From contig NZ_JAAVUP010000003.1 in NCBI RefSeq assembly GCF_012163135.1, positions 586,283 to 650,282 of the forward strand: a DNA stretch of 64,000 nucleotides. Direction: 5' to 3'. How positions within the stretch are numbered: position 1 is the first letter of the stretch; every line of letters starts with the position of its first letter. The translations under genes were made by a program, and so were the position numbers. Of this stretch, positions 17,408 to 64,000 are shown piece by piece. Below the pieces are notes generated by a model. That model was given only the letters and a program-made list of their open reading frames with translations. It had not been told where the DNA came from and did no database searches. The stretch is from Neoroseomonas oryzicola. GTDB lineage: Bacteria; Pseudomonadota; Alphaproteobacteria; Acetobacterales; Acetobacteraceae.

Positions 17408-18328
17408 GTGCGTGTGTACGCCTGGCTCGATGCCTTCGTTCCTGCCTTCGCGCTGCTGGCGCTCGGCACGCTGCTGAAGCGCCGCCTGCTGAAGGACGAC
17501 ACCATCTGGGCGGGCATGGAGCGCCTGATCTACTGGGTGTTGCTGCCGTCCCTCATCGTCGCGGCGCTGGCGCCGCTCAACCTCTCGGAGCTGCCGCTGG
17601 GGCGCATCGCTGGGGCGATCTGGACGGCGCTGGCGCTGGGCACGGTGATCTCGGTCCTGCTGGCGCGCGCGCTGGGGCTCGGGCATCCGGCGATGACCTC
17701 GGTGCTGCAGGGCGGCATCCGCTTCAACAACCTGATGGGCTTCGCCATCGTCGGCGCGCTGTTCGGCGCGCCGGGCACCGGCTTCGGGGCGGTCGCCACC
17801 GGCATCATCGTGCCTTTCGTGCAGGTGGTGACGACGCTGGCCTTCGCGCTGGACGGCCAGCGCGGGCCGCCGCGCCCGGCGATGATCGCGCGGCAATTGC
17901 TGCTGAACCCGCTGCTGCTGGCGGTGGCGATCGGCTTCGGCGTCGCGGCGCTGGGCGGGCTGCCGCCGGGCATCGCGCCGACGGTGCAGACGCTGGGCCG
18001 CGCATCGGTGGCGCTCGGCCTGCTGTGCGTCGGCGCGGCGCTGTCGGTCGACTCCTTTTCCGACCGCGTGGGCGTGCAGGCGGTGACGGGCGTGCTGAAG
18101 CTGACGGTGATGCCGCTCGTCACCTGGGCTCTGTGCACGCTGTTCGGCGTGCCGCCGCTCGCGACCGCGGTCGCGGTGATCTTCATGGCGCTGCCGACGG
18201 CGGCGACGTCCTACGTCATGGCGCGCGCGCTGGGCGGGGATGCGCCGCTGATGGCGGCGATCACGACGACGGAACACATCGCGTCGATCCTGACGCTGCC
18301 GCTGTGGGTGATGCTGGTGGCGCCGTAG
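17408..18328 (+). CDS. AEC-family (auxin efflux carrier type) transporter
   Basis: Integral membrane carrier of the auxin efflux carrier family, 306 residues with about ten hydrophobic helices. Seen: the opening FVPAFALLALGTLLKRR, GGIRFNNLMGFAIVGALFG near residue 100 (the conserved RxNN-like block of the family), and the end MALPTAATSYVMARALGGDAPLMAAITTTEH, another family hallmark. Bacterial members export malonate, malate or other organic anions. The start is GTG at 17408; a GTG two codons later is equally possible. It is convergent with the next TctC receptor across a family B repeat. Confidence 0.88.
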   Translation: MRVYAWLDAFVPAFALLALGTLLKRRLLKDDTIWAGMERLIYWVLLPSLIVAALAPLNLSELPLGRIAGAIWTALALGTVISVLLARALGLGHPAMTSVLQGGIRFNNLMGFAIVGALFGAPGTGFGAVATGIIVPFVQVVTTLAFALDGQRGPPRPAMIARQLLLNPLLLAVAIGFGVAALGGLPPGIAPTVQTLGRASVALGLLCVGAALSVDSFSDRVGVQAVTGVLKLTVMPLVTWALCTLFGVPPLATAVAVIFMALPTAATSYVMARALGGDAPLMAAITTTEHIASILTLPLWVMLVAP

Positions 18329-18330
18329 GC

Positions 18331-18459
18331 GGGGGGAAGGGAACTTCCCCCCGTGCCCCCCAACCTTCTTTGTCTTCTGGAGACTGACCTCGGCGGTCAG
18401 TTCCCATGTCCCAAAGAAGGTTGAGGGGGGTTCGGGGGGAGAAGTTCCCTTCTCCCCCC
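18331..18459. repeat. extragenic repeat family B, copy 1
   Basis: Three nested palindromes. Left: GGGGGGAAG GGAA CTTCCCCCC (18331-18352). Middle: CAACCTTCTTTG (18361-18372) pairs with CAAAGAAGGTTG (18412-18423) around a 39-base loop. Right: GGGGGGAGAAG TTCC CTTCTCCCCCC (18434-18459, perfect 11-bp stem). It fills the gap between convergent genes, starts 2 bases after one stop and ends 3 bases before the other, and so probably works as a two-way terminator. Confidence 0.85.
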
Positions 18460-18462
18460 GCC

Positions 18463-38428: not shown

Positions 38429-38439
38429 CGGTGAAGGTC

Positions 38440-38540
38440 GGGGGAGGGTGAACCTCCCCCGAACCCCCTCCCTTCTTTGGATACTTGGTTCCAAAGAAGG
38501 TTGAGGGGGGTCTCGGGGGGAGAAGTTCTCTTCTCCCCCC
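38440..38540. repeat. extragenic repeat family B, copy 2
   Basis: Three palindromes: GGGGGAGG...CCTCCCCC (38440-38460), CCTTCTTTGG with CCAAAGAAGG around 10 bases (38471-38500), and GGGGGGAGAAG TTCT CTTCTCCCCCC (38515-38540). It lies between katG and the codirectional Fur-like gene, where it should reduce readthrough. The left stem differs from copy 1 on both arms (compensating changes). Confidence 0.85.
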
Positions 38541-38581
38541 GTCTATCGAATAGGGGCGCCAGACCCCGCTTGGGAGGACCC

Positions 38582-41439: not shown

Positions 41440-41444
41440 GCGTC

Positions 41445-41615
41445 GGGGGGAGAACAGAACTTCTCCCCCCGAACCGGGCCCCCAATGGCGTTGCTGCGCA
41501 ACGTCATTGGGACCGGAACCCCCCTCAACCTTCTTTGCAACCTGAGAACCGGCGGCCGTGGCCGGTGCCAAGGATCCAAAGAAGGGAGGGGGTCCGGGGG
41601 AGGTTCCCCTCCCCC
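41445..41615. repeat. extragenic repeat family B, copy 3 (inverted, expanded)
   Basis: Reverse-complement layout of copy 2 with extra inserts. First GGGGGGAGAA...TTCTCCCCCC (41445-41470), then an inserted hairpin around CCAATGGCGTTG / CAACGTCATTGG, then the CAACCTTCTTTG / CAAAGAAGG pair with a GC-rich insert in the loop, and last GGGGGAGG TTCC CCTCCCCC (41596-41615). It begins 5 bases after the folC stop. Confidence 0.8.
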
Positions 41616-41732
41616 GCCCTTTCCCTCGTGTTTCCGCATATTGCGTTGCACAACGACACCAAGGGTGATTTCGCGCGACGCGGCCTCAGGGTCTAAGACG
41701 CTGGCGCAATCGCCGCAGCACCCCGAGGACTC

Positions 41733-42881
41733 ATGACCGCTCCCATCGCGCTCTTCGACGTCAAGGCGCAGCAGGCGCTGATCCGCGCCGAGCTCGACCG
41801 GCGCATCGCCGCCGTCCTCGATTCCGGCCGCTTCATCAACGGCCCGGAGGTGACGGAGCTCGAGGAGAAGCTCGCTGCCTTCGCCGGCGTCGCGCATGCC
41901 GTCGGCGTCTCCTCGGGCACCGATGCGCTGCAGATCGCGATGATGGCCGAAGGCATCGGCCGCGGCGACGCGGTCTTCCTGCCCGCCTTCACCTACACCG
42001 CGACGGCCGAGGTGCCGCTCGTCCTCGGCGCGACGCCCGTCTTCGTCGACGTGGACGCCCAGACCTTCAACATCGACATCGCCGACCTCGAGAAGCGGAT
42101 CGCCGCGGTGAAGAAGGACGGCCGCCTGAAGCCGCGCGCGGTGGTGGGCGTGGACCTGTTCGGCCTGCCCGCCGACTGGCCGGCGATCGAGGCGATCTGC
42201 GCACGGGAGGGGATGTTCGCCCTGGACGACGCGGCGCAGGCCTTCGGCGCGCGGCTTGGCAACCGCCGGCTCGGCGGCTGGGGCGGTGCGGCGGCGCTGT
42301 CCTTCTACCCGACCAAGACGCTCGGCGCGTATGGCGACGGCGGCGCGCTGCTGACCAACGACGCGGATCGCGCGGAGCTGTTCCGCTCGCTGCGCACGCA
42401 TGGCGAAGGCAAGACGCGCTACGAGGTCGAGCGCACCGGCATGAACGGACGGCTCGACACGCTGCAGGCGACGATCCTCTGCGCCAAGATGGGCATCTTC
42501 GAGCAGGAGCTCGAGCAGCGCCGTCGTATCGGCGCGGCCTACGACGCGGCCTTCGCAGGCAAGGTCGGCGTGCAGGTCGCGCAGGAAGGGGCCGAGAACT
42601 GCTACGGCCTCTACACCATCCGCCTGCCGGATGCGGCGGTGCGGGCGCGCGTGCAGCAGGCGCTCTCGGCGCAGCAGATCGGCTCGGGCATCTATTACCC
42701 GAAGCCGCTGCACCATCAGCCGGCCTATGCCGCGCATCATGCTGGCGCCGTCGCGGGCGGCCCGGCGCCGCTGCCGGTGAGCGAGGCGCTGTGCCACCAG
42801 GTCCTGTCGCTGCCGATGCATCCCTACATGACCGAGGCGGATGCCGCGCGCGTGGCCGGGGTCGTTCTCGGCGCCCTTTGA
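41733..42881 (+). CDS. DegT/DnrJ/EryC1/StrS-family PLP aminotransferase
   Basis: A 382-residue aminotransferase of the DegT family, which usually aminates keto-sugars for cell-surface polysaccharides. Seen: LFDVKAQQALIRAELDRRI at the start, GVSSGTDALQIAMMAEGI near residue 55 (cofactor phosphate region), the ALDDAAQAFGARLG block near 165 and the Schiff-base Lys in LSFYPTKTLGAYGDGG near 190. No sugar or O-antigen cluster is adjacent, so its substrate is open. A family B repeat is upstream and a family A repeat downstream. Confidence 0.88.
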   Translation: MTAPIALFDVKAQQALIRAELDRRIAAVLDSGRFINGPEVTELEEKLAAFAGVAHAVGVSSGTDALQIAMMAEGIGRGDAVFLPAFTYTATAEVPLVLGATPVFVDVDAQTFNIDIADLEKRIAAVKKDGRLKPRAVVGVDLFGLPADWPAIEAICAREGMFALDDAAQAFGARLGNRRLGGWGGAAALSFYPTKTLGAYGDGGALLTNDADRAELFRSLRTHGEGKTRYEVERTGMNGRLDTLQATILCAKMGIFEQELEQRRRIGAAYDAAFAGKVGVQVAQEGAENCYGLYTIRLPDAAVRARVQQALSAQQIGSGIYYPKPLHHQPAYAAHHAGAVAGGPAPLPVSEALCHQVLSLPMHPYMTEADAARVAGVVLGAL

Positions 42882-42889
42882 CCGCGATT

Positions 42890-42940
42890 GGAGGGGCGCC
42901 GCCCCTCCAAGCCACCCCGCCGGGGGGCTGCGGCCCCCTG
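42890..42940. repeat. extragenic repeat family A, copy 4
   Basis: GGAGGGGC GCC GCCCCTCC (42890-42908), spacer AAGCCACCCCGC and a second GC hairpin CCGGGGGGC...GGCCCCCTGG (about 42920-42940). The first 32 bases match copy 2 exactly, while the second hairpin differs in sequence but keeps the stem. It starts 9 bases after the DegT stop. Confidence 0.8.
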
Positions 42941-43073
42941 GACCGCGATCCTTTGACGCCGCGCGACGGACCGGGCGCTGTTCCGCCCGGGCCCCTCTCG
43001 GCCCCGCCGCACGTTTGAGTTGAATCCCCCCGGCCGCGCGCGCAACCTTCCGAATCGACACGAGGAGGTACCG

Positions 43074-43796
43074 ATGCGTCGCAGGACCCTTCTCGCCGCC
43101 GCGGGCGTTGCCGCGGTCCCCACCATCCGGCCCGCCCGGGCCCAGGATGCGGTCGATGTTTCCCTGGTCCTTGCCGTGGACGTCTCCCGCTCGATCGACG
43201 AGGACGAAGCCCGGCTGCAGCGCGAGGGCTATCGCCTCGCCGTCTCGGACCCCGTGGTGGTCGCCGCGATCCGCGGCGGCATGGTGGGCGCGATCGGCCT
43301 CGCCTATGTCGAATGGGCAGGCATCGAATACCAGCGCACCGTGATCCCCTGGCGCCGCATCGCGAGCCAGGCCGACGCCGATGCCTGGGCGGCGGAACTC
43401 GCGACCGCGCCGCGCGTCTCGCTCTCCTGGACCTCGATCTCGGGCGCCATCCGCCATTCGCGCCAGGTCATGGCGGACTGCCCGTGGGAGGCGACGCGCA
43501 AGGTGATCGACGTCTCGGGCGACGGGGTGAACAACTCCGGCCCGCCCGCGGACCGCGAACGCGACGCGGCGGTGGCCGAGGGCATCGTCATCAACGGCCT
43601 GCCCATCGTGAACGACCGCCCGACCTTCGGGCGCCTGCCGCCCGTGCCGCTCGACGACTACTACCGGGAGAACGTCATCGGCGGCGACGGGTCCTTCATG
43701 ATCGTCGCCGAGGATTTCGAGAGCTTCGGCGTCGCCGTGAAGCGCAAGCTGATCCGCGAGATCGCGAACCTGCCGGCGGGTTCTATTCCGGCCTGA
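43074..43796 (+). CDS. secreted DUF1194 (vWA-like) protein
   Basis: A 240-residue DUF1194 protein. Twin-arginine-like signal RRRTLLAAAGVAAVPTIRPARAQ, then a von Willebrand A-like fold with the MIDAS-type motif DVSRSID (DxSxS, near residues 35-40), SWTSISGAIRHSRQ near 125 and DVSGDGVNNSG near 150. It probably binds a divalent metal and acts in the periplasm. The function is not known. Start fixed by GAGGAGGT ahead of ATG 43074. Its 3' end overlaps by 14 bases with the convergent lipoprotein gene. Confidence 0.85.
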   Translation: MRRRTLLAAAGVAAVPTIRPARAQDAVDVSLVLAVDVSRSIDEDEARLQREGYRLAVSDPVVVAAIRGGMVGAIGLAYVEWAGIEYQRTVIPWRRIASQADADAWAAELATAPRVSLSWTSISGAIRHSRQVMADCPWEATRKVIDVSGDGVNNSGPPADRERDAAVAEGIVINGLPIVNDRPTFGRLPPVPLDDYYRENVIGGDGSFMIVAEDFESFGVAVKRKLIREIANLPAGSIPA

Positions 43797-44208
43797 CGGC
43801 GCCCTGCTCGACCAGCCGGAGGCAGCCCTGCACCACCGGGGCGCAGGCGGAATTCTGCGACATCGGCAGGTCCGAGGCGGCCGAGTAGCCGATCCGCGTC
43901 ACCTTGCCGTCCACCAGCTGGAAGGTGACCCGGCAGGTCGAACCGGCCGAGACCGACAGCGACCCGCCGATCACCGGCACCGGCGCCGACACGCCCGAGG
44001 CGGGCGGGGCGCGGTCATAGGTCCAGAACTCGCCGCCCGCGGAATTCGCCGTCAGGTTCGGCACGCCGGCGCACAGGCGCAGATCGTCCGCGCGCAGGCC
44101 GACCAGGCGTTCCCGACCGTCCTCGGCCACCGCGGAATCCCGCGCCGAGCAGCCCGGCAGCAGCAGGATCGGCAGCAGCAGGAGGAAGCGGCGCGGCGTC
44201 ACCCTCAC
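43783..44208 (-). CDS. putative lipoprotein
   Basis: A 141-residue product not matched to a named family. Signal RRFLLLLPILLLPGCSARD with a lipobox Cys (LPGC). The middle GLRADDLRLCAGVPNLTANSAGGEFWTYD is a small conserved-looking patch that resembles other alphaproteobacterial lipoproteins with an 'LxxCAGxP' pattern. The GTG start overlaps the stop of the DUF3775 gene by GTGA. It overlaps the convergent DUF1194 gene at the 3' ends. Confidence 0.65.
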   Translation of the reverse strand: MRVTPRRFLLLLPILLLPGCSARDSAVAEDGRERLVGLRADDLRLCAGVPNLTANSAGGEFWTYDRAPPASGVSAPVPVIGGSLSVSAGSTCRVTFQLVDGKVTRIGYSAASDLPMSQNSACAPVVQGCLRLVEQGAVRPE

Positions 44209-44618
44209 TCCTCGTCCTCGAGCGACAGGCCGAGTTCTTCCAGCCCTTCCTCGAGCATGTCGCCCAGCATCTCGATGCCGAGCAGGTAGTCCGCCGGGTC
44301 GCGCACGTTGCGCTCGCGCGCCAGGGTGCGCGCCTCCTCCCAGTCCTCGGCCGCATAGTCGCCGCGGCCGATCCAGGCGAGCGCGATGAGGGAGGCCTGC
44401 TCGTCCTCGTTCAGGTCGTTGATGAAGGCGCGCAGCGCGTCCTCATCCATGTTCTCGTCGTCCTCGGCGTCGAGGCCTTCCTCGTCCTCCTCCTCGCGCG
44501 CGAGGGCGCCGCTTTCCTCGCCCTCCTGCACGGCGCGGGCGGCGTCCACGATGGCGGCGACGGCCTCGAGGCTGATGCCGAGGTCGAAATCCTCCTCCTC
44601 GTCCTCGCGTGCGGCCAT
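44205..44618 (-). CDS. acidic DUF3775-type protein
   Basis: A 137-residue, very acidic cytoplasmic protein. Residues 1-60 include runs of Glu/Asp (REEEDEEGLDAEDDENMDED). The C-terminal part DALRAFINDLNEDEQASLIALAWIGRGDY ... WEEARTLARERNVRDPADYLLGIEMLGDMLEEGL is the DUF3775 domain. The start at 44618 is chosen because AGGAG lies 8 bases upstream; ATG 44622 lies too close. The function is unknown. It is coupled to the lipoprotein gene by a 4-base overlap. Confidence 0.75.
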   Translation of the reverse strand: MAAREDEEEDFDLGISLEAVAAIVDAARAVQEGEESGALAREEEDEEGLDAEDDENMDEDALRAFINDLNEDEQASLIALAWIGRGDYAAEDWEEARTLARERNVRDPADYLLGIEMLGDMLEEGLEELGLSLEDEE

Positions 44619-44691
44619 GGTCATCACTCCTGGTCTGGTCGGTCGGCAATCAAGCATGGGCGGGCGGGGGCTTGCCACCCCCGGGGGGCGC

Positions 44692-44739
44692 GGGCCGATG
44701 CCGGACCCGGCACGCGCCGCGAGGCGCCCTCCCGGGCGC
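44692..44739. repeat. degenerate family C repeat plus terminator-like hairpin
   Basis: GGGCCGATGCCGGACCCGG (44692-44710) matches the GGGCCGGTGCCGGAC block of family C. Then GCGCCC TCCC GGGCGC forms a 6-bp stem (44724-44739) that lies 4 bases after the aldo/keto reductase stop on the minus strand, where it may terminate that operon. Confidence 0.5.
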
Positions 44740-44743
44740 TCCC

Positions 44744-45571
44744 TCAGGCGTCCCAGTCGGGCGCGAAGGACGGGTTCACCAGCCGGCGGTCCTTGGGCAG
44801 CCGCGCGATGGCCGCGAGGTCCTCGGCATCGAGCCGGATCGACGCGGCGGCGAGGTTCTCCCGCTGCCCTTCCGGCCGGCCGGATTTCGGGATGGCGACG
44901 ACGCCCTCCTGCGCGAGCAGCCAGGCGAGGGCGACCTGCACCGGGCTCGCCCCGCATTTCGCGGCGATGGCACGCATCACCGGGTCGTCGTTCACCTGCC
45001 CCTTGGCGATCGGCGCATAGGCCGTCAGCGCCAGGCCGTGCCGGCGGCACAGCGCGGCGAGCCGGTCCTGCCACAGATACACATGCGCCTCGACCTGCAG
45101 CGCCGCGAGCGGCGCGATGCCGAGCGCGATCGCCCGTTCCAGCAGCCCGGCCGGGAAGTTCGACACGCCGACGGCCCGCGCCAGCCCGTCCTGCTGCAGC
45201 TTCGCCAGCGCGCCGAGCGCGGCCGGCAGGTCCATCTCCGGGGACGGCCAGTGGATCAGGATCAGGTCGGCATAGCGCATGCCGAGCCGCTTGAGCGATG
45301 CCTCGGCCGAGGCGCGCAGCGCATCGGGGGCGAGCTCCGTCCACCACACCTTGGTGGTGAGGAAGATCTCCCCCCGCCGCACGCCCGAGGCCGCGATGCC
45401 GGCCCCGACCGCATCCTCGTTGCCATACATCGCCGCGGTGTCGATGTGCCGGTAGCCGAGGCCGATGGCGCCCTCGACCGCCTGCTGCGCCTCCGCTCCG
45501 CGCAGCGTCCAGGTGCCGAGGCCGATGCGCGGGATGCGCAGGCGCAGCGTCTCGAGGATCGGCGCGCTCAT
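44744..45571 (-). CDS. aldo/keto reductase
   Basis: A 275-residue NADPH-dependent (beta/alpha)8 reductase. Seen: IPRIGLGTWTL at the start, GYRHIDTAAMYGNED with the catalytic Asp and Tyr near residues 40-54, FLTTKVWW with the catalytic Lys near 75, HWPSPEMDLP near 107 and IPKSGRPEGQRENL with the NADPH-phosphate-binding Lys-Ser near 230. It probably reduces aldehydes or 2,5-diketogluconate-type compounds. It overlaps the WD40 gene stop by ATGA, so the two are coupled. Confidence 0.9.
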   Translation of the reverse strand: MSAPILETLRLRIPRIGLGTWTLRGAEAQQAVEGAIGLGYRHIDTAAMYGNEDAVGAGIAASGVRRGEIFLTTKVWWTELAPDALRASAEASLKRLGMRYADLILIHWPSPEMDLPAALGALAKLQQDGLARAVGVSNFPAGLLERAIALGIAPLAALQVEAHVYLWQDRLAALCRRHGLALTAYAPIAKGQVNDDPVMRAIAAKCGASPVQVALAWLLAQEGVVAIPKSGRPEGQRENLAAASIRLDAEDLAAIARLPKDRRLVNPSFAPDWDA

Positions 45572-46593
45572 CGCTTGGACAGGTCCACCAGGCCCGCGCC
45601 GCCGGCCTCGGTGCCGAAGGCGAGGTGCGTGCCCGCATCGTTCCAGGCAAGCGCCGAGACCGCCGACCCGCCCGGCGGGGCAACCGGCACGACGCGGCCC
45701 GAGGCGACCTCGGCGATCAGCACCAGCCCGTCGCCGAAGCCCGCGGCCACGACCTCCTGCTGCGGGTGGCAGGCGACCATGGTGCAGAGCACGCCGTCCC
45801 CGCCCGCGAGCTCGGTCGGCGCCTTGCCCATCGGCCCGCCGCCGAAGAAGGGCCAGAGCACGACGCAATCGGCCCCGGCGGTCGCGAGCCAGCGCCCCTT
45901 GGCGGTGAAGCCCATCGATTTGGTCTTCGAGGGATAGCCCGCCATGCGCATGTGCTGGCCGTCGGCCAGGCGCCAGCCATGCAGCGTGTTCTCCTGCATG
46001 GAGGTCACGACATGGGTGCCGTCCGGGCTGATCAGGACGCCGGTGTGGCTGCCCTTCCATTCCAGCAGCCGGGGCGTGCTTTCCTTCGCCGCGACGAACC
46101 ACAGCGAGGCGCCGTTGTAGTGGGACGCGGCGAGGCGCTTGCCCTTGGCGTCGAAGGCGATGCCGGTGACCGTGGACGGGTGCGCGAGCGACTTCAGCGC
46201 CGCGCCCTTGCCGTCGAGCAGGTGCACCGCCTTGCCCACCGCCGCGGCGCGCAGGCCGGATTCGTGGCTCGTGACCTGGTCGACCCAGCGGCTGCCGTAT
46301 TTCGCGACCTCGGTCGCGCTGGCGTCGGGGGCGATGCGCATCAGCCGCCCGTCGTCGCCGCCGGTGATCACCCCGTCCTTGCAGTCCGGCGCGATGGCGA
46401 GGCAGGCGCCGTCATGCGCGGCGACGCCGGCCCAGTCGCCCTCGATGGCCGCGAGGCGCACGGTCCCGTCGCCCAGCGCGAAGGCGCAGGACCGGCCGCC
46501 GCGCCCGAAGGCCGCGCCCACGACCCAGGCGCCGAGATCCTCGGCCCGGCCGCGGTGGGAGATGAGGTAATCGGCGGTCAGCGACGTGCTCAT
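45568..46593 (-). CDS. WD40-repeat protein
   Basis: A 341-residue beta-propeller with blades such as VVGAAFGRGGRSCAFALGDGTVRLAAI, HPSTVTGIAFDAKGKRLAASHYNGASLWFV, HTGVLISPDGTHVVTSMQENTLHGWRLADG and TKSMGFTAKGRWLATAGADCVVLWPFF. They fit WD40 rather than NHL repeats. No signal peptide, so cytoplasmic. It overlaps the aldo/keto reductase gene by 4 bases and diverges from the OsmC gene. A scaffold or regulatory role is possible. Such WD40 proteins occur in many alphaproteobacteria with no known partner. Confidence 0.82.
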   Translation of the reverse strand: MSTSLTADYLISHRGRAEDLGAWVVGAAFGRGGRSCAFALGDGTVRLAAIEGDWAGVAAHDGACLAIAPDCKDGVITGGDDGRLMRIAPDASATEVAKYGSRWVDQVTSHESGLRAAAVGKAVHLLDGKGAALKSLAHPSTVTGIAFDAKGKRLAASHYNGASLWFVAAKESTPRLLEWKGSHTGVLISPDGTHVVTSMQENTLHGWRLADGQHMRMAGYPSKTKSMGFTAKGRWLATAGADCVVLWPFFGGGPMGKAPTELAGGDGVLCTMVACHPQQEVVAAGFGDGLVLIAEVASGRVVPVAPPGGSAVSALAWNDAGTHLAFGTEAGGAGLVDLSKR

Positions 46594-56087: not shown

Positions 56088-56822
56088 ATGGCGACGGAAC
56101 AGGGGATTCGCGAGGCCCGGGGGCTGATTCGCGGGGCGATGTCGGCGACGCTGGCATCCTCGGCGGGCGGGCAGCCCTTCGCGAGCCTGGTCACCCCGGC
56201 GCCCGCGCCGGACCTCTCGCCCCTGCTGTGGCTGTCCACGCTGTCCGAGCACACGCGACACCTGGCGGCGGAACCCCGCTGCGCCCTGCTGTTCGCAGGG
56301 ACGGCCGAGGGGCCGAATCCGCAGACCGCCCCGCGGGTGACCGTCACCGGCCTCGCCGAACGCGTGCCGGACGCGGAGGTCGCGCCGCTCAAGACCCGCT
56401 GGCTGGCCCGCCACCCCTATGCCGCGCTCTATGCCGACTTCGCGGATTTCGGCCTGTGGCGGGTGCGGATCGGCGGCGCGCTGCAGGTCGGCGGCTTCGC
56501 CCGCGCCGAACGGATCAAGGCCGCCGAGCTGGCCCCCGACCCCGCCGCGGTCGCCGCCATCGCGGCCGCGGAGGCCGACATCATCGCCCATGTGAACGCC
56601 GACCACCCCGACGCGGTGGAGGCGATCGCGAACGGGCTGCTCGGCGCCGGGCCCGGCCCCTGGCGGCTGGTGGCGGTGGACGTGGATGGTTGCGACCTGT
56701 CCGAAGGTAACCGAACGGTTCGTCTTGCCTTCTTAGCGCCGTTAAGCGATGCGGACGGTGTGCGTGCGGCGCTGATCCGTGCGGCGCGGGAGGGAAGGGC
56801 GCGGCTGGCGCCGCCTCACTGA
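56088..56822 (+). CDS. HugZ-like pyridoxamine-oxidase-fold heme protein with DUF2470
   Basis: A 244-residue protein with a split-barrel N-terminal domain ([26 protein letters not shown] ... [13 protein letters not shown], residues 13-70) and a C-terminal DUF2470 part ([26 protein letters not shown] near 170). This pair is seen in HugZ and related heme oxygenase-like or FMN-binding proteins. The His of DHPDAV is the likely heme ligand. Strong ribosome site GGAGGCAGAG. It lies between divergent chvI and codirectional pckA, where pckA is often the next gene itself. Confidence 0.8.
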
Positions 56823-56910
56823 GAGGCGGTCCTGCCGCAATTCTGCCGTCCGTGTCGCTGAAACGGCGCCGTCACACCCAGCCTCGTGACGCTCAGGAGA
56901 GCCGTTCCGC

Positions 56911-58506
<1,596 letters not shown>

Positions 58507-58508
58507 CC

Positions 58509-59096
58509 ATGGCGCGGCACGGGGGGCGCTTCGTCCCCCCGTCCGTCCCGCGCCGCGCGGCGCTGCTGCTGCCCCTCGCGGCGCAGGCGCCCGATCCGCT
58601 CGCCGCGGTGATGGCGCGCCTCGCCGCAGTGCGGGAGGTGCGGGCGCGCTTCGTCGAGGACAAGGAGCTTCCCGAGCTCGACCGCCCGCTGACCTCGCGC
58701 GGCCTGCTGTCCTGGCGCGCGCCCGACCGGCTCGAGAAGCGCACCCTGGAGCCCGCGCTGGAACTCTTCCTGGTCGAGGGCGACACGCTCACCCTCGAGC
58801 GCCCCGAGCGCGGCATCCGCGAGACGCTCGCCCTCGACACCGCCCCCGAGATCCGTCCGCTGGTCGAGGCGATCCGCGCCACGCTGGCCGGCGACCTCGC
58901 CACGCTGCGCCGCTACCATGAGGTGACCTTCAGCGGCACGCCGGAGCGCTGGCGCATCCTGCTCGTGCCCCTGTCGGTCCGCGCGCGGGCGGCGGTGCAG
59001 CGCGTGGTGCTGGAAGGCGAGGGCGGCTTCATGACCACGGTCGAGACCCAGGGGAGCGACGGCCGCAGCCGCCTGGTGGCGACACGCCTGCCGTGA
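58509..59096 (+). CDS. LolA-like outer-membrane lipoprotein carrier
   Basis: A 195-residue LolA-fold protein with the N-terminal signal RRAALLLPLAAQAPDPLAAVMARLAAVREVRARFVEDKELPELDRPL, where the LolA domain opens. SRGLLSWRAPDRLEKRTLEP near residue 70 and VEGDTLTLERPERG near 95 match LolA relatives. In aryl-polyene clusters a LolA-like protein usually accompanies the MMPL exporter and moves the lipid product to the outer membrane. It starts 2 bases after pckA and precedes the exporter by 28 bases. Confidence 0.82.
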   Translation: MARHGGRFVPPSVPRRAALLLPLAAQAPDPLAAVMARLAAVREVRARFVEDKELPELDRPLTSRGLLSWRAPDRLEKRTLEPALELFLVEGDTLTLERPERGIRETLALDTAPEIRPLVEAIRATLAGDLATLRRYHEVTFSGTPERWRILLVPLSVRARAAVQRVVLEGEGGFMTTVETQGSDGRSRLVATRLP

Positions 59097-59124
59097 CGCG
59101 CCTGGCCTGCGTGGGACGTGCCGC

Positions 59125-61422
59125 ATGAAGCGCTTCGCCACGCTCCTGCTCGCCCTCGCCGCGCTGGCCGGCGCCTTCGCGCTGGCGATGCGCGTGGTCG
59201 AGGTCAGGTCCGACATCGCCGATTTCCTCCCCGCGCCCACCACGCCCGAGGCCGCCTTCCTGTTGCAGGAACTGCGCAGCGGCGCGGCCACGACGCTGCT
59301 GCTCGCGGGCATCGAGGGCGCGCCGCCGGCCGATCTCGCCCGCATCTCGCAATCCATGGCGCGCGCCATGGCGCAATCCGGCGCCTTCGCGCTGGTGGCC
59401 AACGGCACCGCCATGGTGGGCGATGAGGAAGCCGCGCTGCTCTTCGCCCATCGCTACGCCCTTTCGCCCGCCGCGACGCCCGACGCCTTCGCCGAGCCCG
59501 CGCTGCGCCAGGCGCTCGACGGCGTGCTGGACGGGCTGCGGTCTTCCGCCGCGCCGCTGGTGCGCCGCTTCGCCTTCGCCGACCCGACCGGCGCCTTCCT
59601 CGCCATGCTGCGCGGCTGGGCCGGGGAGGCGCGCGTCGCGACCGAGCACGGCGTCTGGATGGCCCATGGCCGCGCGCTGCTGCTCGCCCAGACGCGCGCC
59701 TCGGGCCTCGACACCGAGGCGCAGGCCCAGGCTGTCGCGACGATCCGCGCCGCCTTTGCCGCGGCCGATCCGCCGGACGGGGCGCGGCTGCTGGTCTCGG
59801 GCCCGGGCGTCTTCGCGGCCGAGGCGGCGGCGACGGTGCGCGCCGACGTCGCCCTGGTGTCGAAGCTCTCGCTCGTGCTGGTGGGCGCCTTCCTGCTCTG
59901 GCGCTACCGCTCGCCGATGATGCTCGCCGTGGTGGCGCTGCCGCTGTCGGTCGGCACCCTGGCCGCGCTGCTCGTCGTCGATGCGGTGTTCGGCCACGTC
60001 CATGCTGCGGCGATCGGCTTCGGCATCACCATGCTCGGCGTCTGCGACGACTATCCGCTGCTGCTGGTGACCAACCGCGCGCCGGGGGAGACCCCGCGCG
60101 AGACCGCGCGGCGCGTCTGGCCGACGCTGCGCCTCGCCGCCGCCGCGGCGGTGGCGGGGCTGACGCCGATGTTGGCCTCGGGCTTCCCGGGCCTGGCGCA
60201 ACTCGGCCTGTTCGCCGCGACCGGACTGCTCGGCGCGGCCCTTGCCACCCGCTTCCTGCTGCCGCCGCTGCTGCCGCCCGAGGGACTGTTCGTCCGGCCG
60301 CTGCCCGAACGCCTCGCGCACCTGCTCCTGCGGCTGCCGGCGCGGCGCGGCGTGGTGCTGGGTCTGCTCGCGGTGGTCGCCATGGCGCTGGCGGTCGCCG
60401 GCGGACCGAGGATGGAACGCGACCTCGCGGCGCTGAGCCCGGTGCCCGAGCCGGTGCGCGCCCTGGATGGCGAGCTCCGCGCCCAGGTCGGCGCGCCGGA
60501 TGTCCGCGTCGTGCTTGCGCTGCGGGCCCCGGATGCCGAGGCCGCGCTGCGCGGCGCCGAGGCCGCCGCCGCCGCGCTGATGGCCTCCGGCGCCGTCGAG
60601 GCGATCGACCACCCCGCGCGCTTCCTGCCCTCCATCGCGACCCAGCGCGCCCGCATCGCCGCCCTGCCGGATGCCGCGACGCTGGCGGAACGGCTCGACG
60701 CCGCGCGGCAGGGCCTGCCTTTCCGCGCCACCGCCTTCCAGCCTTTCCTCGACGGCATGGAGGAAGCGCGCCGCCTGCCGCCCCTGACGCCGGCCGACCT
60801 CGGGTCGCTGCCGACGCTGGCCGCGCGCCTCGCCCCGCTGCTGCGGGAGGACGGGGAGGGCTGGCGCGCCCTGCTGCTGCCCGGTGGCATCCGCGACATG
60901 GACGCGCTGCGCGCCGCCGCCGCGACCGTGCCCGGCCTGCTGCTGGTCGACTTCAAGGCCGAGACCGGGGCGCTGCTCGACCAGGGCGTCCGCGAGGCGC
61001 TCAAATGGGGCGCTGTCGGCGCGGTGCTGGTGCTGGTCCTGCTCGGCGCCGGGCGCGGGCTCGCGGGCGGGCTGCGCATCGCGCTGTCGCTCGCCGGGGC
61101 GTTGCTGCTGACCTTCGCCATCCTCGCTGCGCTGGGGGAACGGATCGGGGTCTTCCACCTCACCGCGGCGCTCTTGTTGGCCGGCGTGGGGATGGACTAT
61201 GCGTTGTTCATGTCACGTTCCGGCGAGGAGAGCACCGAGGACGCCGCACGTGCCCTGGGTTCGGTCATCAGTTGCATGGTCACGACGCTGCTCACCTTCG
61301 GCCTGCTCGCGCTCTGCGCCACGCCGGTGCTGCACGCCACGGGACTGACCGTGACGGTGGGCGTCGCCTCGGCCTTCCTGCTCGCCTGTGCCCTGGCGCC
61401 GCGCCGGGCCGGGACCAGTTGA
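59125..61422 (+). CDS. MMPL/RND-family exporter
   Basis: A 765-residue inner-membrane exporter. One N-terminal helix, a large periplasmic loop (about 25-240), then a five-to-six-helix bundle (240-400). A second half follows, with a shorter loop (about 415-620) and a final bundle to 755. Motifs: GFGITMLGVCDDYPLLLVTNRAPGETPRETARRVWPTLRLAAAAAVAGLTPM near 290-345 and the second-half counterpart GVGMDYALFMSR near 690. Asp residues there are proton-relay candidates. It lies between the LolA-like gene and the ketosynthase and should export the polyene lipid. Confidence 0.88.
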   Translation: MKRFATLLLALAALAGAFALAMRVVEVRSDIADFLPAPTTPEAAFLLQELRSGAATTLLLAGIEGAPPADLARISQSMARAMAQSGAFALVANGTAMVGDEEAALLFAHRYALSPAATPDAFAEPALRQALDGVLDGLRSSAAPLVRRFAFADPTGAFLAMLRGWAGEARVATEHGVWMAHGRALLLAQTRASGLDTEAQAQAVATIRAAFAAADPPDGARLLVSGPGVFAAEAAATVRADVALVSKLSLVLVGAFLLWRYRSPMMLAVVALPLSVGTLAALLVVDAVFGHVHAAAIGFGITMLGVCDDYPLLLVTNRAPGETPRETARRVWPTLRLAAAAAVAGLTPMLASGFPGLAQLGLFAATGLLGAALATRFLLPPLLPPEGLFVRPLPERLAHLLLRLPARRGVVLGLLAVVAMALAVAGGPRMERDLAALSPVPEPVRALDGELRAQVGAPDVRVVLALRAPDAEAALRGAEAAAAALMASGAVEAIDHPARFLPSIATQRARIAALPDAATLAERLDAARQGLPFRATAFQPFLDGMEEARRLPPLTPADLGSLPTLAARLAPLLREDGEGWRALLLPGGIRDMDALRAAAATVPGLLLVDFKAETGALLDQGVREALKWGAVGAVLVLVLLGAGRGLAGGLRIALSLAGALLLTFAILAALGERIGVFHLTAALLLAGVGMDYALFMSRSGEESTEDAARALGSVISCMVTTLLTFGLLALCATPVLHATGLTVTVGVASAFLLACALAPRRAGTS

Positions 61423-61427
61423 GGTCC

Positions 61428-62612
61428 ATGCTGCCGCTGCGCATTTCCGCGATCACCGCGACCAGCGCCATGGGCGTGGGCCTGGCGGCCACGCGCCAGG
61501 CGCTGCAGGCGCGCGCCGGCGGCCTGACGCGCTGCGACCTGCCCGGCATGCCCGAGGGCATCTGGATCGGCCGCGTGCGTGAGGCCGAGGCGATCGAGCC
61601 GCCCGCCCCGCTCGCCGCCTTCGCCTGCCGCAACACAAGGCTTGCGGAACTCGCGCTCCGCCAGGACGGCTTCGCGGATGCGGTCGCCGACGCCGCCGCG
61701 CGCCACGGCGCGGACCGCATCGCTGTGGTGCTCGGCACCTCGACCTCCGGCATCGAGGAGACGGAGCAGGCCTGGTCGCGCCGTGGCGCGGATGGCGCGC
61801 TGCCGCCCTACGACTTCGCCCGCACCCACGACCTGCACGCGCTGCCGCGCTACGTCCGCGCGCGGCTCGGTCTGAAGGGGCCCTGCGTGTCGATCTCGAC
61901 GGCCTGCACCTCGGGCGCGCGGGCCTTCCTTGATGCGGCGATGCTGATCGCGGCGGGGCTGGCTGACGCCGCGGTGGTGGGCGGGGCGGACACGCTGTGC
62001 CGGCTGACGCTGCACGGCTTCGGCTCGCTCGAATTGCTGGCGAAGGGGCCGACGCGACCCTGCGCCGAGGACCGCGACGGCATCAGCATCGGGGAGGCCG
62101 CGGCCTTCGCCCTGCTGGAACGCGCGGGGCCGGGCGACCAGGGCGCGCTCGGCCTGCTCGGCGCGGGGGCGTCGTCGGATGGGCACCACATGTCCTCCCC
62201 GCATCCGGAAGGCCATGGCGCGGTGGCGGCGATGCGCGCCGCGCTGGACAGCGCAGGGATCGGACCGGGCGCGATCGACTACGTGAACATGCACGGCACC
62301 GGCACGCGCACCAATGACGCCATGGAGGACCGCGCCATCGCGCGCATCTTCGGCGACGCGGTGCCGTGTTCCTCGACAAAGGGCTGGACCGGGCACACGC
62401 TCGGCGCCTCCGGCGCGCTGGAAGCCGCGATCGCGGCCATCTGCGTCGAGGACGGGCTGGTGCCCGGCTGCCTCGGCATCGCGCAGCCCGATCCGTCCTT
62501 CGCCGCGCGCATCGCGGTCGCCAACGCCGCCGCGCCGGTGGCGCGCGTGCTGTCCAATTCCTTCGGCTTCGGCGGCAGCAATTGCGCGCTGGTGATCGGG
62601 CGGCTGCCGTGA
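61428..62612 (+). CDS. beta-ketoacyl-ACP synthase (aryl-polyene type)
   Basis: A 394-residue condensing enzyme with a full Cys-His-His catalytic set: C160 in SISTACTSGARA, H289 in NMHGTGTRTND and H323 in GWTGHTLGASGA, with K318 in SSTKGW. C-terminal SNSFGFGGSNCALVIG is normal. The N-terminus is close to FabF/KAS II but with a shorter first part. It starts with GAGG 5 bases ahead and 5 bases after the exporter stop. It is followed by a half-size KS partner in GTGA overlap. Together they look like the KS/chain-length-factor pair of an aryl-polyene type II polyketide synthase. Confidence 0.88.
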   Translation: MLPLRISAITATSAMGVGLAATRQALQARAGGLTRCDLPGMPEGIWIGRVREAEAIEPPAPLAAFACRNTRLAELALRQDGFADAVADAAARHGADRIAVVLGTSTSGIEETEQAWSRRGADGALPPYDFARTHDLHALPRYVRARLGLKGPCVSISTACTSGARAFLDAAMLIAAGLADAAVVGGADTLCRLTLHGFGSLELLAKGPTRPCAEDRDGISIGEAAAFALLERAGPGDQGALGLLGAGASSDGHHMSSPHPEGHGAVAAMRAALDSAGIGPGAIDYVNMHGTGTRTNDAMEDRAIARIFGDAVPCSSTKGWTGHTLGASGALEAAIAAICVEDGLVPGCLGIAQPDPSFAARIAVANAAAPVARVLSNSFGFGGSNCALVIGRLP

Positions 62613-63397
62613 GCCTCGCGGTCGGCATCGCCGGCATCGGCCTGCTCGGCCCCGGGCTCATGGGCTGGGCGCCCTCCGCGGCCGTGCTGGCGGGTGCCGT
62701 GCCCTACGAGCCCGCGCCGCTGACGCCGCCCGCCCCGACCCTGCTGCCCGCCACCGAGCGCCGCCGCACCGGCCCCTCCGTGCGCCTCGCCCTCGCCGTG
62801 GCGACCGAGGCGGTGCAGGACAGCGGCCTGCCGCCCGAGGAACTCGACACCGTCTTCGCCAGCTCGAACGGCGAGGGCCATGTCATCACCTCGATCCTCC
62901 AGGCGCTGCACACGCCGGATGGCGCGATCTCCCCGACGCAGTTCCACAATTCCGTGCACAACGCGGCGGCGGGCTATTGGGGCATCGCGGTGGGGTCGGC
63001 GCGGCCCTCCGTCAGCCTCGGCGGCCATGACGGCGTGCTGGGGACGGGATTGCTGCACGCCGCGGCGCAGGCGGTGGTGGCGCGGCGCCCGGTGCTGTTC
63101 GTCGCGCATGACGTGCCGCTGCCCGCGCCGCTCGATGCGCTGCGGCCGACCGCGGCGTCCTTCGCCCTCGCGCTGGTGCTGGTGCCCGAGGGCGGCACGC
63201 ATGGGCGGATCACCCTGGCGCAGGAGGACAGTGCCGCGGAGGCGTCGGACCTGCCCGATGGCCTCGCGGCGCTGCACGACGCCAACCCGGTCGCGCGCGC
63301 CCTGCCGCTGCTCGCGGTGCTTGCCGGCGGCAGGGGCGGGACGGTCCGGCTGCCGATGCTCGAGGATACGCGCCTCGCAGTGGCGGTGGCGGCGTGA
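62609..63397 (+). CDS. half-length ketosynthase partner (chain-length-factor-like)
   Basis: A 262-residue KS-like protein with only the first half of a condensing enzyme. Where the preceding KS has VSISTACTSG, this one reads VSLGGHDGVL, so the catalytic Cys is lost (Asp at the Cys place), and no C-terminal HGTGT or GHTLG block follows. It matches the Ketoacyl-synt_2 type used in aryl-polyene clusters as a chain-length factor. FHNSVHNAAAGYWGIAVG near residue 115 is another conserved feature. It starts with GTG, overlapping the KS stop, and ends in a GTGA overlap with the dehydratase. Confidence 0.78.
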   Translation: MSLAVGIAGIGLLGPGLMGWAPSAAVLAGAVPYEPAPLTPPAPTLLPATERRRTGPSVRLALAVATEAVQDSGLPPEELDTVFASSNGEGHVITSILQALHTPDGAISPTQFHNSVHNAAAGYWGIAVGSARPSVSLGGHDGVLGTGLLHAAAQAVVARRPVLFVAHDVPLPAPLDALRPTAASFALALVLVPEGGTHGRITLAQEDSAAEASDLPDGLAALHDANPVARALPLLAVLAGGRGGTVRLPMLEDTRLAVAVAA

Positions 63398-63819
63398 GCC
63401 TGCCCGCGACGCGCGCGGCGATCGCGCGCCTCGTTCCGCACCAGGGCGGCATGTGCCTGCTCGACCGCGTCACGGCCTGCGACGCGGATGGCATCGCCTG
63501 CCTGTCCGCCACGCATCGCGATGCATCGAACCCACTGCGCCGCGACGGCGTGCTGCCGGCGGTCTGCGGCCTGGAATACGCGCTGCAGGCGATGGCGCTG
63601 CATGGTGCGCTGACCGATGGCGGGCCGCAGGGCGTGGGCTTCCTCGCCGCGCTGGCGGGTGTCGAGGTCGGCGCCGAACGGCTCGACGACATCCAAGGCG
63701 ACCTCGCCGTCAGCGCCACGGCGCTGGCGCGCGAAAGCCGCGGCTTCATCTACGGCTTCGCGGTCGAGGGCGGTGGGCGCCGCCTGCTCTCCGGCCGCGC
63801 CACGGTGGTCCTCGCATGA
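63394..63819 (+). CDS. hotdog 3-hydroxyacyl-ACP dehydratase (ApeP-like)
   Basis: A 141-residue FabZ-like dehydratase. The catalytic His lies in LVPHQGGMCLLDRV (residue 16), the counterpart of the FabZ LPHRxPFLLVDRV motif, and the acid Glu in AVCGLEYALQAMALHG near residue 66. Such short dehydratases are constant members of aryl-polyene clusters, where they help form the conjugated chain. It is embedded in overlapping GTGA and ATGA junctions on both sides. Confidence 0.82.
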   Translation: MSLPATRAAIARLVPHQGGMCLLDRVTACDADGIACLSATHRDASNPLRRDGVLPAVCGLEYALQAMALHGALTDGGPQGVGFLAALAGVEVGAERLDDIQGDLAVSATALARESRGFIYGFAVEGGGRRLLSGRATVVLA

Positions 63820-64000
63820 TCCGTGCCCTCGTCACCGGCGGCAGCAGCCCGATCGGGGAGGCGATCTGCCGCGCCCTCGCCCGCGACGGGCTGCGCGTCA
63901 TCGTCCATGCCCATGCCAATGTCGCGCGCGCCGAGGCGCTGGCGGCGGAGCTCGGCGGCGAGAGCGTCGCCTTCGACATCGCCGACCACGCGGCGAGCCT
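63816..64000 (+). CDS. 3-oxoacyl-ACP reductase (FabG/ApeQ-like), partial
   Basis: The N-terminal 61 residues of a short-chain reductase, cut by the window end. MIRALVTGGSSPIGEAICRALARDG carries the NADPH-binding TGGSSPIG motif. It overlaps the dehydratase stop by ATGA. It should reduce 3-keto groups in the polyene chain, in the order KS, CLF, DH, KR. Confidence 0.85.
   Translation, partial: MIRALVTGGSSPIGEAICRALARDGLRVIVHAHANVARAEALAAELGGESVAFDIADHAAS

What the first reader, a model, noticed from the sequence alone, without database searches (positions are those of the whole stretch)
58509..64000. Aryl-polyene-like type II PKS operon directly behind pckA
Seen: LolA-like, MMPL exporter, Cys-His-His ketosynthase, Cys-less half KS, FabZ-like dehydratase and the start of a FabG-like reductase follow each other with gaps of 2-28 bases or 4-base overlaps. 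Known: aryl-polyene and xanthomonadin clusters combine just these classes. Inference: this alphaproteobacterium makes a membrane-bound polyene pigment. The pckA stop lies only 2 bases from the LolA start, so carbon control might feed into pigment synthesis. The ACP, ligase and acyltransferase genes expected are not on the left side, so they must lie beyond 64000 or elsewhere.
Basis: partly seen in the sequence, partly recalled or inferred. Interest (0 to 1): 0.75.

Follow-up and report, generated by a model that had tools for sequence, protein, structure and literature searches.

The report
Split aryl-polyene pathway behind pckA
In this bacterium the genes for a pigment-like membrane lipid have been cut into two halves by a chromosome rearrangement, and one half now sits directly behind a central metabolism gene, which may have changed when the pigment is made.

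Summary
The six genes behind pckA are the elongation and export half of an aryl-polyene (APE) pathway: ApeL (LolA-like), ApeM (MMPL), ApeO ketosynthase, ApeC half-ketosynthase, ApeP dehydratase, ApeQ reductase. The set ends 520 bases past the window. The other half (ACP, ApeG, ligase ApeH, dehydratase ApeI, acyltransferase) lies 12-16 kb further right, on the opposite strand.

APE clusters in Acetobacteraceae are already published; the arrangement is what is new. In 78 of 81 family genomes with both marker genes on one contig, ApeH is upstream of ApeO on the same strand; only this genome and Neoroseomonas marina have them on opposite strands. Roseomonas sp. HF4 shares both new junctions (pckA-lolA, acyltransferase-DUF2237), though its ACP and ApeH lie on another contig. 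The pckA-lolA gap is 2 bases in all three, leaving no intergenic promoter, so the six genes are probably read from pckA. In Agrobacterium pckA is acid-induced under ChvG/I. All 11 genes are open; those with enough changes to judge are under purifying selection.

Co-transcription, product and starter are inferred. No ApeR-like second ketosynthase and no UbiC were found.

The parts
56911..58506 (+). pckA (PEP carboxykinase), upstream partner of the captured half-operon
   Evidence: ORF; NCBIfam TIGR00224 680.7 bits, cut-off 590; found in 28 of 30 family genomes searched
58507..58508 (.). 2-base pckA/lolA junction (rearrangement breakpoint)
   Evidence: same TGA-NN-ATG spacing in N. marina and Roseomonas sp. 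HF4
58509..59096 (+). ApeL: LolA-like carrier; signal peptide judged by eye
   Evidence: Pfam LolA_3 E 2.2e-13
59125..61422 (+). ApeM: MMPL exporter
   Evidence: Pfam MMPL E 1.9e-17
61428..62612 (+). ApeO: catalytic ketosynthase
   Evidence: NCBIfam NF006618 496 bits, cut-off 407; best PDB hits 6qsp_A and 7f28_B; clade with 6qsp_A at 100/99
62609..63397 (+). ApeC: one-domain ketosynthase partner (chain length factor)
   Evidence: Pfam Ketoacyl-synt_2 E 1.6e-29; PDB 7f28_A and 6qsp_B
63394..63819 (+). ApeP: dehydratase subunit
   Evidence: profile of 11 relatives hits only PDB 6qsr_B, E 1.8e-8; Pfam ApeP-like in 3 of 11 members at E<=0.1; for the window protein E 0.058, under the cut-off
63816..64000 (+). 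ApeQ: FabG-like ketoreductase, runs on to window-equivalent 64520 (L009:7099-7803); end of half-operon 1. Further parts lie beyond the window and are listed with coordinates in the Full report section
   Evidence: next gene is convergent

Best explanation
This is half of an aryl-polyene (APE) pathway that in relatives is one operon and that here was cut between the acyltransferase and lolA genes. Shown: sequence, gene order and the two swapped junctions in three species. Inferred from characterised APE systems: ApeH loads an aromatic acid on the ACP; ApeO with ApeC adds malonyl units; ApeQ reduces and ApeI/ApeP dehydrate each one; the acyltransferase and perhaps the GT2 attach the polyene to a lipid; the halogenase-like enzyme may modify it; ApeG, ApeM and ApeL carry it to the outer membrane. 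Inferred from the 2-base junction: the six window genes lost the old operon's 5' end (still upstream of the ACP) and are transcribed, and perhaps translationally coupled, with pckA, so that pckA's control, in Agrobacterium ChvG/I and acid, now reaches polyene elongation and export.
For: KS nearest to 6qsp_A and 7f28_B, 261 and 244 bits against 168 for the next entry, and in one clade with 6qsp_A at 100/99 apart from this genome's C12 and C7 KS; half-KS hits only their partner chains; DH profile hits only 6qsr_B; ACP subfamily over cut-off; second half found. Order: ApeH upstream of ApeO on the same strand in 78 of 81 genomes with both on one contig, opposite strands only in G000 and G104, third exception G062 2.15 Mb apart. 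In 16 genomes (this one and 15 close relatives with the pathway) acyltransferase-lolA in 13; pckA-lolA plus acyltransferase-DUF2237 in 3. pckA stop to lolA ATG is 2 bases in all three. dN/dS against N. marina 0.09-0.26 for eight of the eleven ape genes, polA 0.10.
Against: No transcript or product data. No ApeR-like KS in the genome, yet PMC8253772 (section 5) cites in vitro work on the X. doucetiae set in which ApeR is required for initiation. Second ACP, methyltransferase and thioesterase of the E. coli cluster are missing from both halves (not sought genome-wide, except ACPs); no UbiC. The promoter/terminator scan of 56500-59400 found none but expects 0.0 promoters and 1.0 terminators by chance, so it cannot exclude a promoter inside pckA. 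The ape tree does not show the three split species as one clade (two changes on the best tree; one clade not rejected, p-AU 0.40). The KS tree carries long-branch and composition warnings. HF4's ACP and ApeH are on another contig than its acyltransferase. ApeG, ApeI and acyltransferase are assigned mainly by position and weak hits.
Confidence: 0.8

Rival explanations
1. The genes are an aryl-polyene half-operon, but the junction with pckA has no regulatory meaning: a promoter inside the pckA reading frame keeps the half under its own control.
For: No expression data exist; the promoter scan has almost no power in this DNA. The region around pckA has been rearranged more than once, as neutral change would give.
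Against: Only 2 bases separate the genes in three species, one of them with 89% KS identity, although spacing elsewhere in these operons changes freely (about 0.5 kb between acyltransferase and lolA in N. nitratireducens).
Confidence: 0.3
2. The split pathway is a decaying remnant that makes no product.
For: Two same-genus genomes, G203 and G267, lack both marker genes; the genus shows further breaks between ApeH and ApeI, HF4 included.
Against: All 11 reading frames open; dN/dS against N. marina 0.09-0.26, neighbours 0.05-0.15, ApeH being the highest; ApeO, acyltransferase, ApeH and ACP kept in all three split species.
Confidence: 0.1
3. A lipid A very-long-chain fatty acid or primary fatty acid synthase set, not a pigment pathway.
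For: Same enzyme classes; the FabG-like KR scores over a FabG model cut-off.
Against: The genome has a KS-ACP pair on C12 and an ACP-FabA/Z-KS-KS-Adh set on C7; the KS groups with 6qsp_A.
Confidence: 0.02
4. A polyene built on a starter other than a hydroxybenzoate, so not an aryl polyene in the strict sense.
For: No UbiC (PF04345) in the genome; no starter-forming gene recognised in either half.
Against: ApeO, ApeC, ApeP and ACP are nearest to aryl-polyene proteins; the ligase's best NCBIfam hit is a 4-coumarate ligase model, though far under its cut-off (107.5 of 334.7 bits); of 14 control genomes only E. coli has PF04345, Caulobacter not, so its absence says little.
Confidence: 0.12

Closest known systems
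Aryl-polyene clusters of Acetobacteraceae (PMC8776678; section 12 read, other passages)
   Same: Same family; core KS in 19 of 43 acidophilic and 28 of 96 acetous type strains, with linked adenylate-forming protein, dehydrogenase, probable halogenase and transport genes
   Different: That section does not mention a split cluster or pckA
E. coli CFT073 ape cluster (PMC8253772; passages, section 5)
   Same: ApeC, E, G, H, I, L, M, O, P, Q classes and an acyltransferase
   Different: E. coli has 18 genes in one orientation, with a second ACP, ApeR, ApeB, ApeK, ApeN; here 11 genes in two opposed halves and no ApeR found
ApeO-ApeC of Xenorhabdus doucetiae (6qsp) and Acinetobacter baumannii (7f28), dehydratase pair 6qsr (PMC8358021 abstract and passages; 6qsp is named there, 7f28 and 6qsr are labelled from recall)
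   Same: Best solved relatives of KS, half-KS and, by profile, DH
   Different: Those clusters also carry ApeR; the abstract reports full-length polyene with ApeO-ApeC alone and more throughput with ApeR
chvG/chvI-pckA locus of Agrobacterium and Brucella (passages of PMC4285021, and PMC9491525)
   Same: pckA opposite to the two-component genes; here a kinase whose best family model is ChvG (396.8 bits, under the cut-off of 740) and an OmpR-type regulator, with one PNPOx-like gene before pckA
   Different: No pigment genes behind pckA are mentioned there

Membership tests
Proteobacterial aryl-polyene pathway | ApeO ketosynthase of the APE clade | tested here: met
Proteobacterial aryl-polyene pathway | ApeC one-domain partner | tested here: met
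Proteobacterial aryl-polyene pathway | ApeI/ApeP dehydratase pair and ApeQ reductase | tested here: met
   ApeP by profile; ApeI-like only as FabA-fold with a weak ApeI hit; KR
Proteobacterial aryl-polyene pathway | dedicated ACP and ACP-loading ligase | tested here: met
   one ACP in the two halves; ligase activity not tested
Proteobacterial aryl-polyene pathway | ApeL/ApeM/ApeG transport genes | tested here: met
   ApeG by position and conservation only
Proteobacterial aryl-polyene pathway | second KS ApeR, second ACP, methyltransferase, thioesterase (E. coli set) | tested here: not met
   PF00109 over the genome gives no further candidate; none of the others in either half. E. coli without apeR still shows the main APE lipid, so I do not treat ApeR as defining, though in vitro work cited has it required for initiation
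Proteobacterial aryl-polyene pathway | one contiguous cluster in one orientation | tested here: not met
   split here; ApeH upstream on the same strand in 78 of 81 family genomes
Proteobacterial aryl-polyene pathway | product is an aryl polyene lipid | not testable with these tools
   needs extraction and LC-MS
Xanthomonadin-type (halogenated) aryl polyene | flavin halogenase linked to the cluster | tested here: inconclusive
   Pfam Trp_halogenase hit; WxWxIP (halogenase mark from recall) in this protein and in 16 of 16 near-full-length relatives (a 17th hit of 114 aa lacks it); activity unknown
Lipid A very-long-chain acyl set | KS belongs to that set rather than to the ApeO clade | tested here: not met
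   such a set lies on C7 (its name from recall); tree

The most novel reading that the evidence does not exclude
A natural promoter capture: a rearrangement cut a pigment operon between two genes and placed elongation and export behind pckA, next to ChvG/ChvI-like envelope- and acid-sensing genes, while ACP and ligase kept the old promoter. Polyene output would then need both controls at once, an AND gate made by a junction swap and kept in at least three species.
Probability: 0.3. Interest if true: 0.62.

Novelty: new variant of a known kind. Interest (0 to 1): 0.42.

Why it matters
[quoted passage not shown] Here nature has done a promoter swap in a small group, with unsplit close relatives as ready controls, so the effect of pckA control on pigment output can be measured directly. 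A cluster caller that expects one contiguous operon would see two incomplete clusters here. What is known of APE regulation in general was not searched for.

Tried and rejected
Primary FAS or lipid A set: rejected. Continuation of the operon to the right: rejected, the next gene is convergent. A single inversion as the full history: it would explain the reciprocal swap, but in the loci fetched none has pckA-DUF2237-kinase in a row, and a block that lies between CobW and pckA in G292 lies on the other side of pckA here (window 41742-46578), so the path is left open. One origin for the three split species: not shown, not rejected. Promoter or terminator at the junction: none found, scan weak. 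A GC-rich hairpin just inside lolA: z -2.4 here, -1.4 in N. marina, +0.7 in HF4; not used. Starter source: UbiC absent; other routes not searched. The first KS tree had a PKS branch of 7 units and two C7 rows that were the same piece; it was rebuilt without them. Rows dropped: for I entered the best ApeO hit per genome down to 205 bits (113 genomes), leaving out the partial G161 hit and second hits in G088, G012 and G294; one search's own table stops at about 159 bits, where the hits are about 40% identical. For ApeH of G059 two pieces were taken as one place and for G177 the piece on ApeO's contig. In one search N. rubea was left out of the count of changes. In one search, 6 of 40 loci with under 2.4 kb beyond the KS were left out of the neighbour count.
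Full report
Place. The window is C23:586283-650282 of a 5.3 Mb genome, 99.6% complete. The nearest named relative by KS is Neoroseomonas marina JC162 at 97%; handle G104 shows the same KS identity and a contig of the same length, 991393 bases, so I take them as one. The organism is thus a Neoroseomonas-like member of Acetobacteraceae.

The set LolA-MMPL-KS-half-KS-DH-KR ends at window-equivalent 64520; after three bases a convergent gene ends, lipoprotein-like by eye.

Identity. The KS scores 496 bits against NF006618 (cut-off 407). Its best solved relatives are 6qsp_A and 7f28_B at 261 and 244 bits; the next entry has 168. 6qsp is ApeO-ApeC of X. doucetiae in PMC8358021 (passages); 7f28 as the A. 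baumannii pair and 6qsr as the dehydratase pair are labels from recall. In a tree of 18 KS rows the window KS groups with 6qsp_A at 100/99, apart from this genome's C12 and C7 KS; the tool warned of long branches and odd composition. The half-KS matches only 7f28_A and 6qsp_B at E<=0.1. The DH matches only 6qsr_B when 11 relatives are used as a profile.

The other half, beyond the window (window-equivalent coordinates, all minus strand): ACP 80005-80271 (L027:18288-18554; Pfam PP-binding E 4.4e-10, NF006617 134.5 bits, cut-off 70); ApeG-like membrane protein 79394-80008 (L027:17677-18291; no Pfam or NCBIfam hit, conserved in relatives); ligase ApeH 78088-79401 (L027:16371-17684; AMP-binding E 1.1e-18); ApeI-like dehydratase 77679-77969 (L027:15962-16252; FabA E 8.4e-9, ApeI-like E 0.0026 under its cut-off); LpxL-like acyltransferase 76780-77685 (L027:15063-15968; Lip_A_acyltrans E 4.7e-9); then DUF2237 76375-76776 (L027:14658-15059). 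Between the halves lie two short lipoprotein-like genes, a GT2 (64993-65811, minus), a halogenase-like flavoenzyme (about 65867-67210, plus), a DUF218 gene, a hydrolase, polA, an MFS gene and a kinase.

Other ketosynthases. PF00109 over the genome gave 8 places: type I PKS on C1, a KS beside an ACP on C12 (FabF-like, not named by a search), two KS on C7 with ACP, FabA/Z-like and Adh neighbours (a lipid A type set, name from recall), ApeO, ApeC and two weak hits of 42 positions. So no ApeR-like KS was found. The literature is divided on its need: ApeO-ApeC of A. baumannii alone makes full-length polyene and ApeR raises throughput (PMC8358021 abstract); E. coli without apeR still shows the main APE lipid, along with late intermediates (PMC8253772); but the same paper cites in vitro work on X. 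doucetiae in which ApeR is required for initiation (section 5).

The split is derived. Of 299 family genomes searched, 113 have an ApeO-like hit as I counted them and 107 an ApeH-like hit; 101 have both, 81 on one contig. In 78 of these ApeH is upstream on the same strand with a gap of 4.1 to 9.4 kb. Two (G000, G104) have them on opposite strands 15.5 and 15.3 kb apart; one (G062) has them 2.15 Mb apart. Twenty more have them on different contigs and cannot be judged. Two same-genus genomes, G203 and G267, have neither.

Junctions. In 16 genomes (this one and 15 close relatives with the pathway) the acyltransferase is followed by lolA in 13 and by DUF2237 in 3: this genome, N. marina and Roseomonas sp. 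HF4. In the same three pckA is followed by lolA. Over 39 pckA loci with flanks of up to 1.5 kb, lolA follows in 3, DUF2237 starts within 0.7 kb in 12, and neither is found in 24, a few of them cut by contig ends; in G121 DUF2237 lies 2.4 kb on. In G203 and G267 pckA and DUF2237 overlap as ATGA, and in G292 acyltransferase and lolA overlap as ATGA; in other relatives the spacing is wider. The pckA stop to lolA start is TGA-CC-ATG here and in N. marina and TGA-GC-ATG in HF4. Three separate assemblies share it, so an assembly error is unlikely. In HF4 the second half is itself broken: acyltransferase and ApeI are on C12, ACP and ApeH on C26.

Age and upkeep. HF4 is 89% identical in KS, so the split is old or arose more than once; the ape tree leaves this open (two changes on the best tree; one clade not rejected, p-AU 0.40). 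dN/dS against N. marina is 0.09-0.26 for ApeL, M, O, acyltransferase, I, H, G and ACP; polA 0.10, pckA 0.07, other neighbours 0.05-0.15 where defined above zero. ApeC is 0.41 on dS 0.015, and ApeP and ApeQ have no synonymous change. Against HF4 the eight ape genes tested give 0.19-0.45, polA 0.19. By this crude measure the genes are kept, not decaying.

Mechanism. The anatomy is shown; the action is inferred from characterised relatives. The old operon's 5' end, divergent from a polysaccharide deacetylase gene, is still upstream of the ACP here as in unsplit close relatives. Half-operon 1 has lost it and has no intergenic room for another promoter. Hence I infer that it is read from pckA. In Agrobacterium pckA lies beside chvG/I in the opposite direction, is acid inducible and under ChvG/I (PMC4285021 passage); in Brucella abortus BvrR binds upstream of pckA in vitro, although pckA is a pseudogene there (PMC9491525 passages). 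Here the neighbouring kinase's best model is ChvG, under the cut-off, and the regulator is OmpR-type; 'ChvI' rests on position. Whether this control exists here was not tested.

Known or new. APE clusters in this family are published (PMC8776678, section 12). The searches (open-access library; listings seen, only the papers cited were opened) showed no report of a split APE cluster or of pckA beside one. So: a known kind of pathway in a new gene arrangement, with a testable regulatory consequence.

Noticed in passing
window 38432-38541, 18328-18462, 41444-41621; L009:12580-12705; L010:8321-8365 and 1253-1370: A GC-rich intergenic repeat, about 110 bases at its longest, recurs in the window, in whole or part, and sits between ApeH and ApeI of half-operon 2.
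   Followed up: partly
window 62609-64520: apeC-apeP-apeQ are almost identical at synonymous sites between this genome and N. marina (dS 0.015, 0, 0) while nearby genes have about 0.07-0.49, which looks like a recent recombination tract.
   Followed up: no
L009:9150-10493: Halogenase-like flavoenzyme with WxWxIP; a relative lies within 5.4 kb downstream of ApeO in 16 of 34 loci with at least 4.3 kb of room (40 examined; three genomes are in the 34 twice), in varying orientation.
   Followed up: partly
L063:7525-12385; L130:1-5575; L133:1-5658: In N. nitratireducens a transporter set (ABC type by eye) is inserted between ApeH and ApeI; in N. lacus and N. alba another such set lies upstream of ApeI. 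The operon is broken repeatedly at this point in the genus.
   Followed up: partly
window 41742-46578: Matches at 82-83% the block between CobW and pckA of G292 but lies on the other side of pckA here, a further rearrangement.
   Followed up: partly
L009:7807-8292 and 10471-10935: Two short lipoprotein-like genes, similar by eye and without Pfam hit, flank the GT2 and halogenase-like genes.
   Followed up: no
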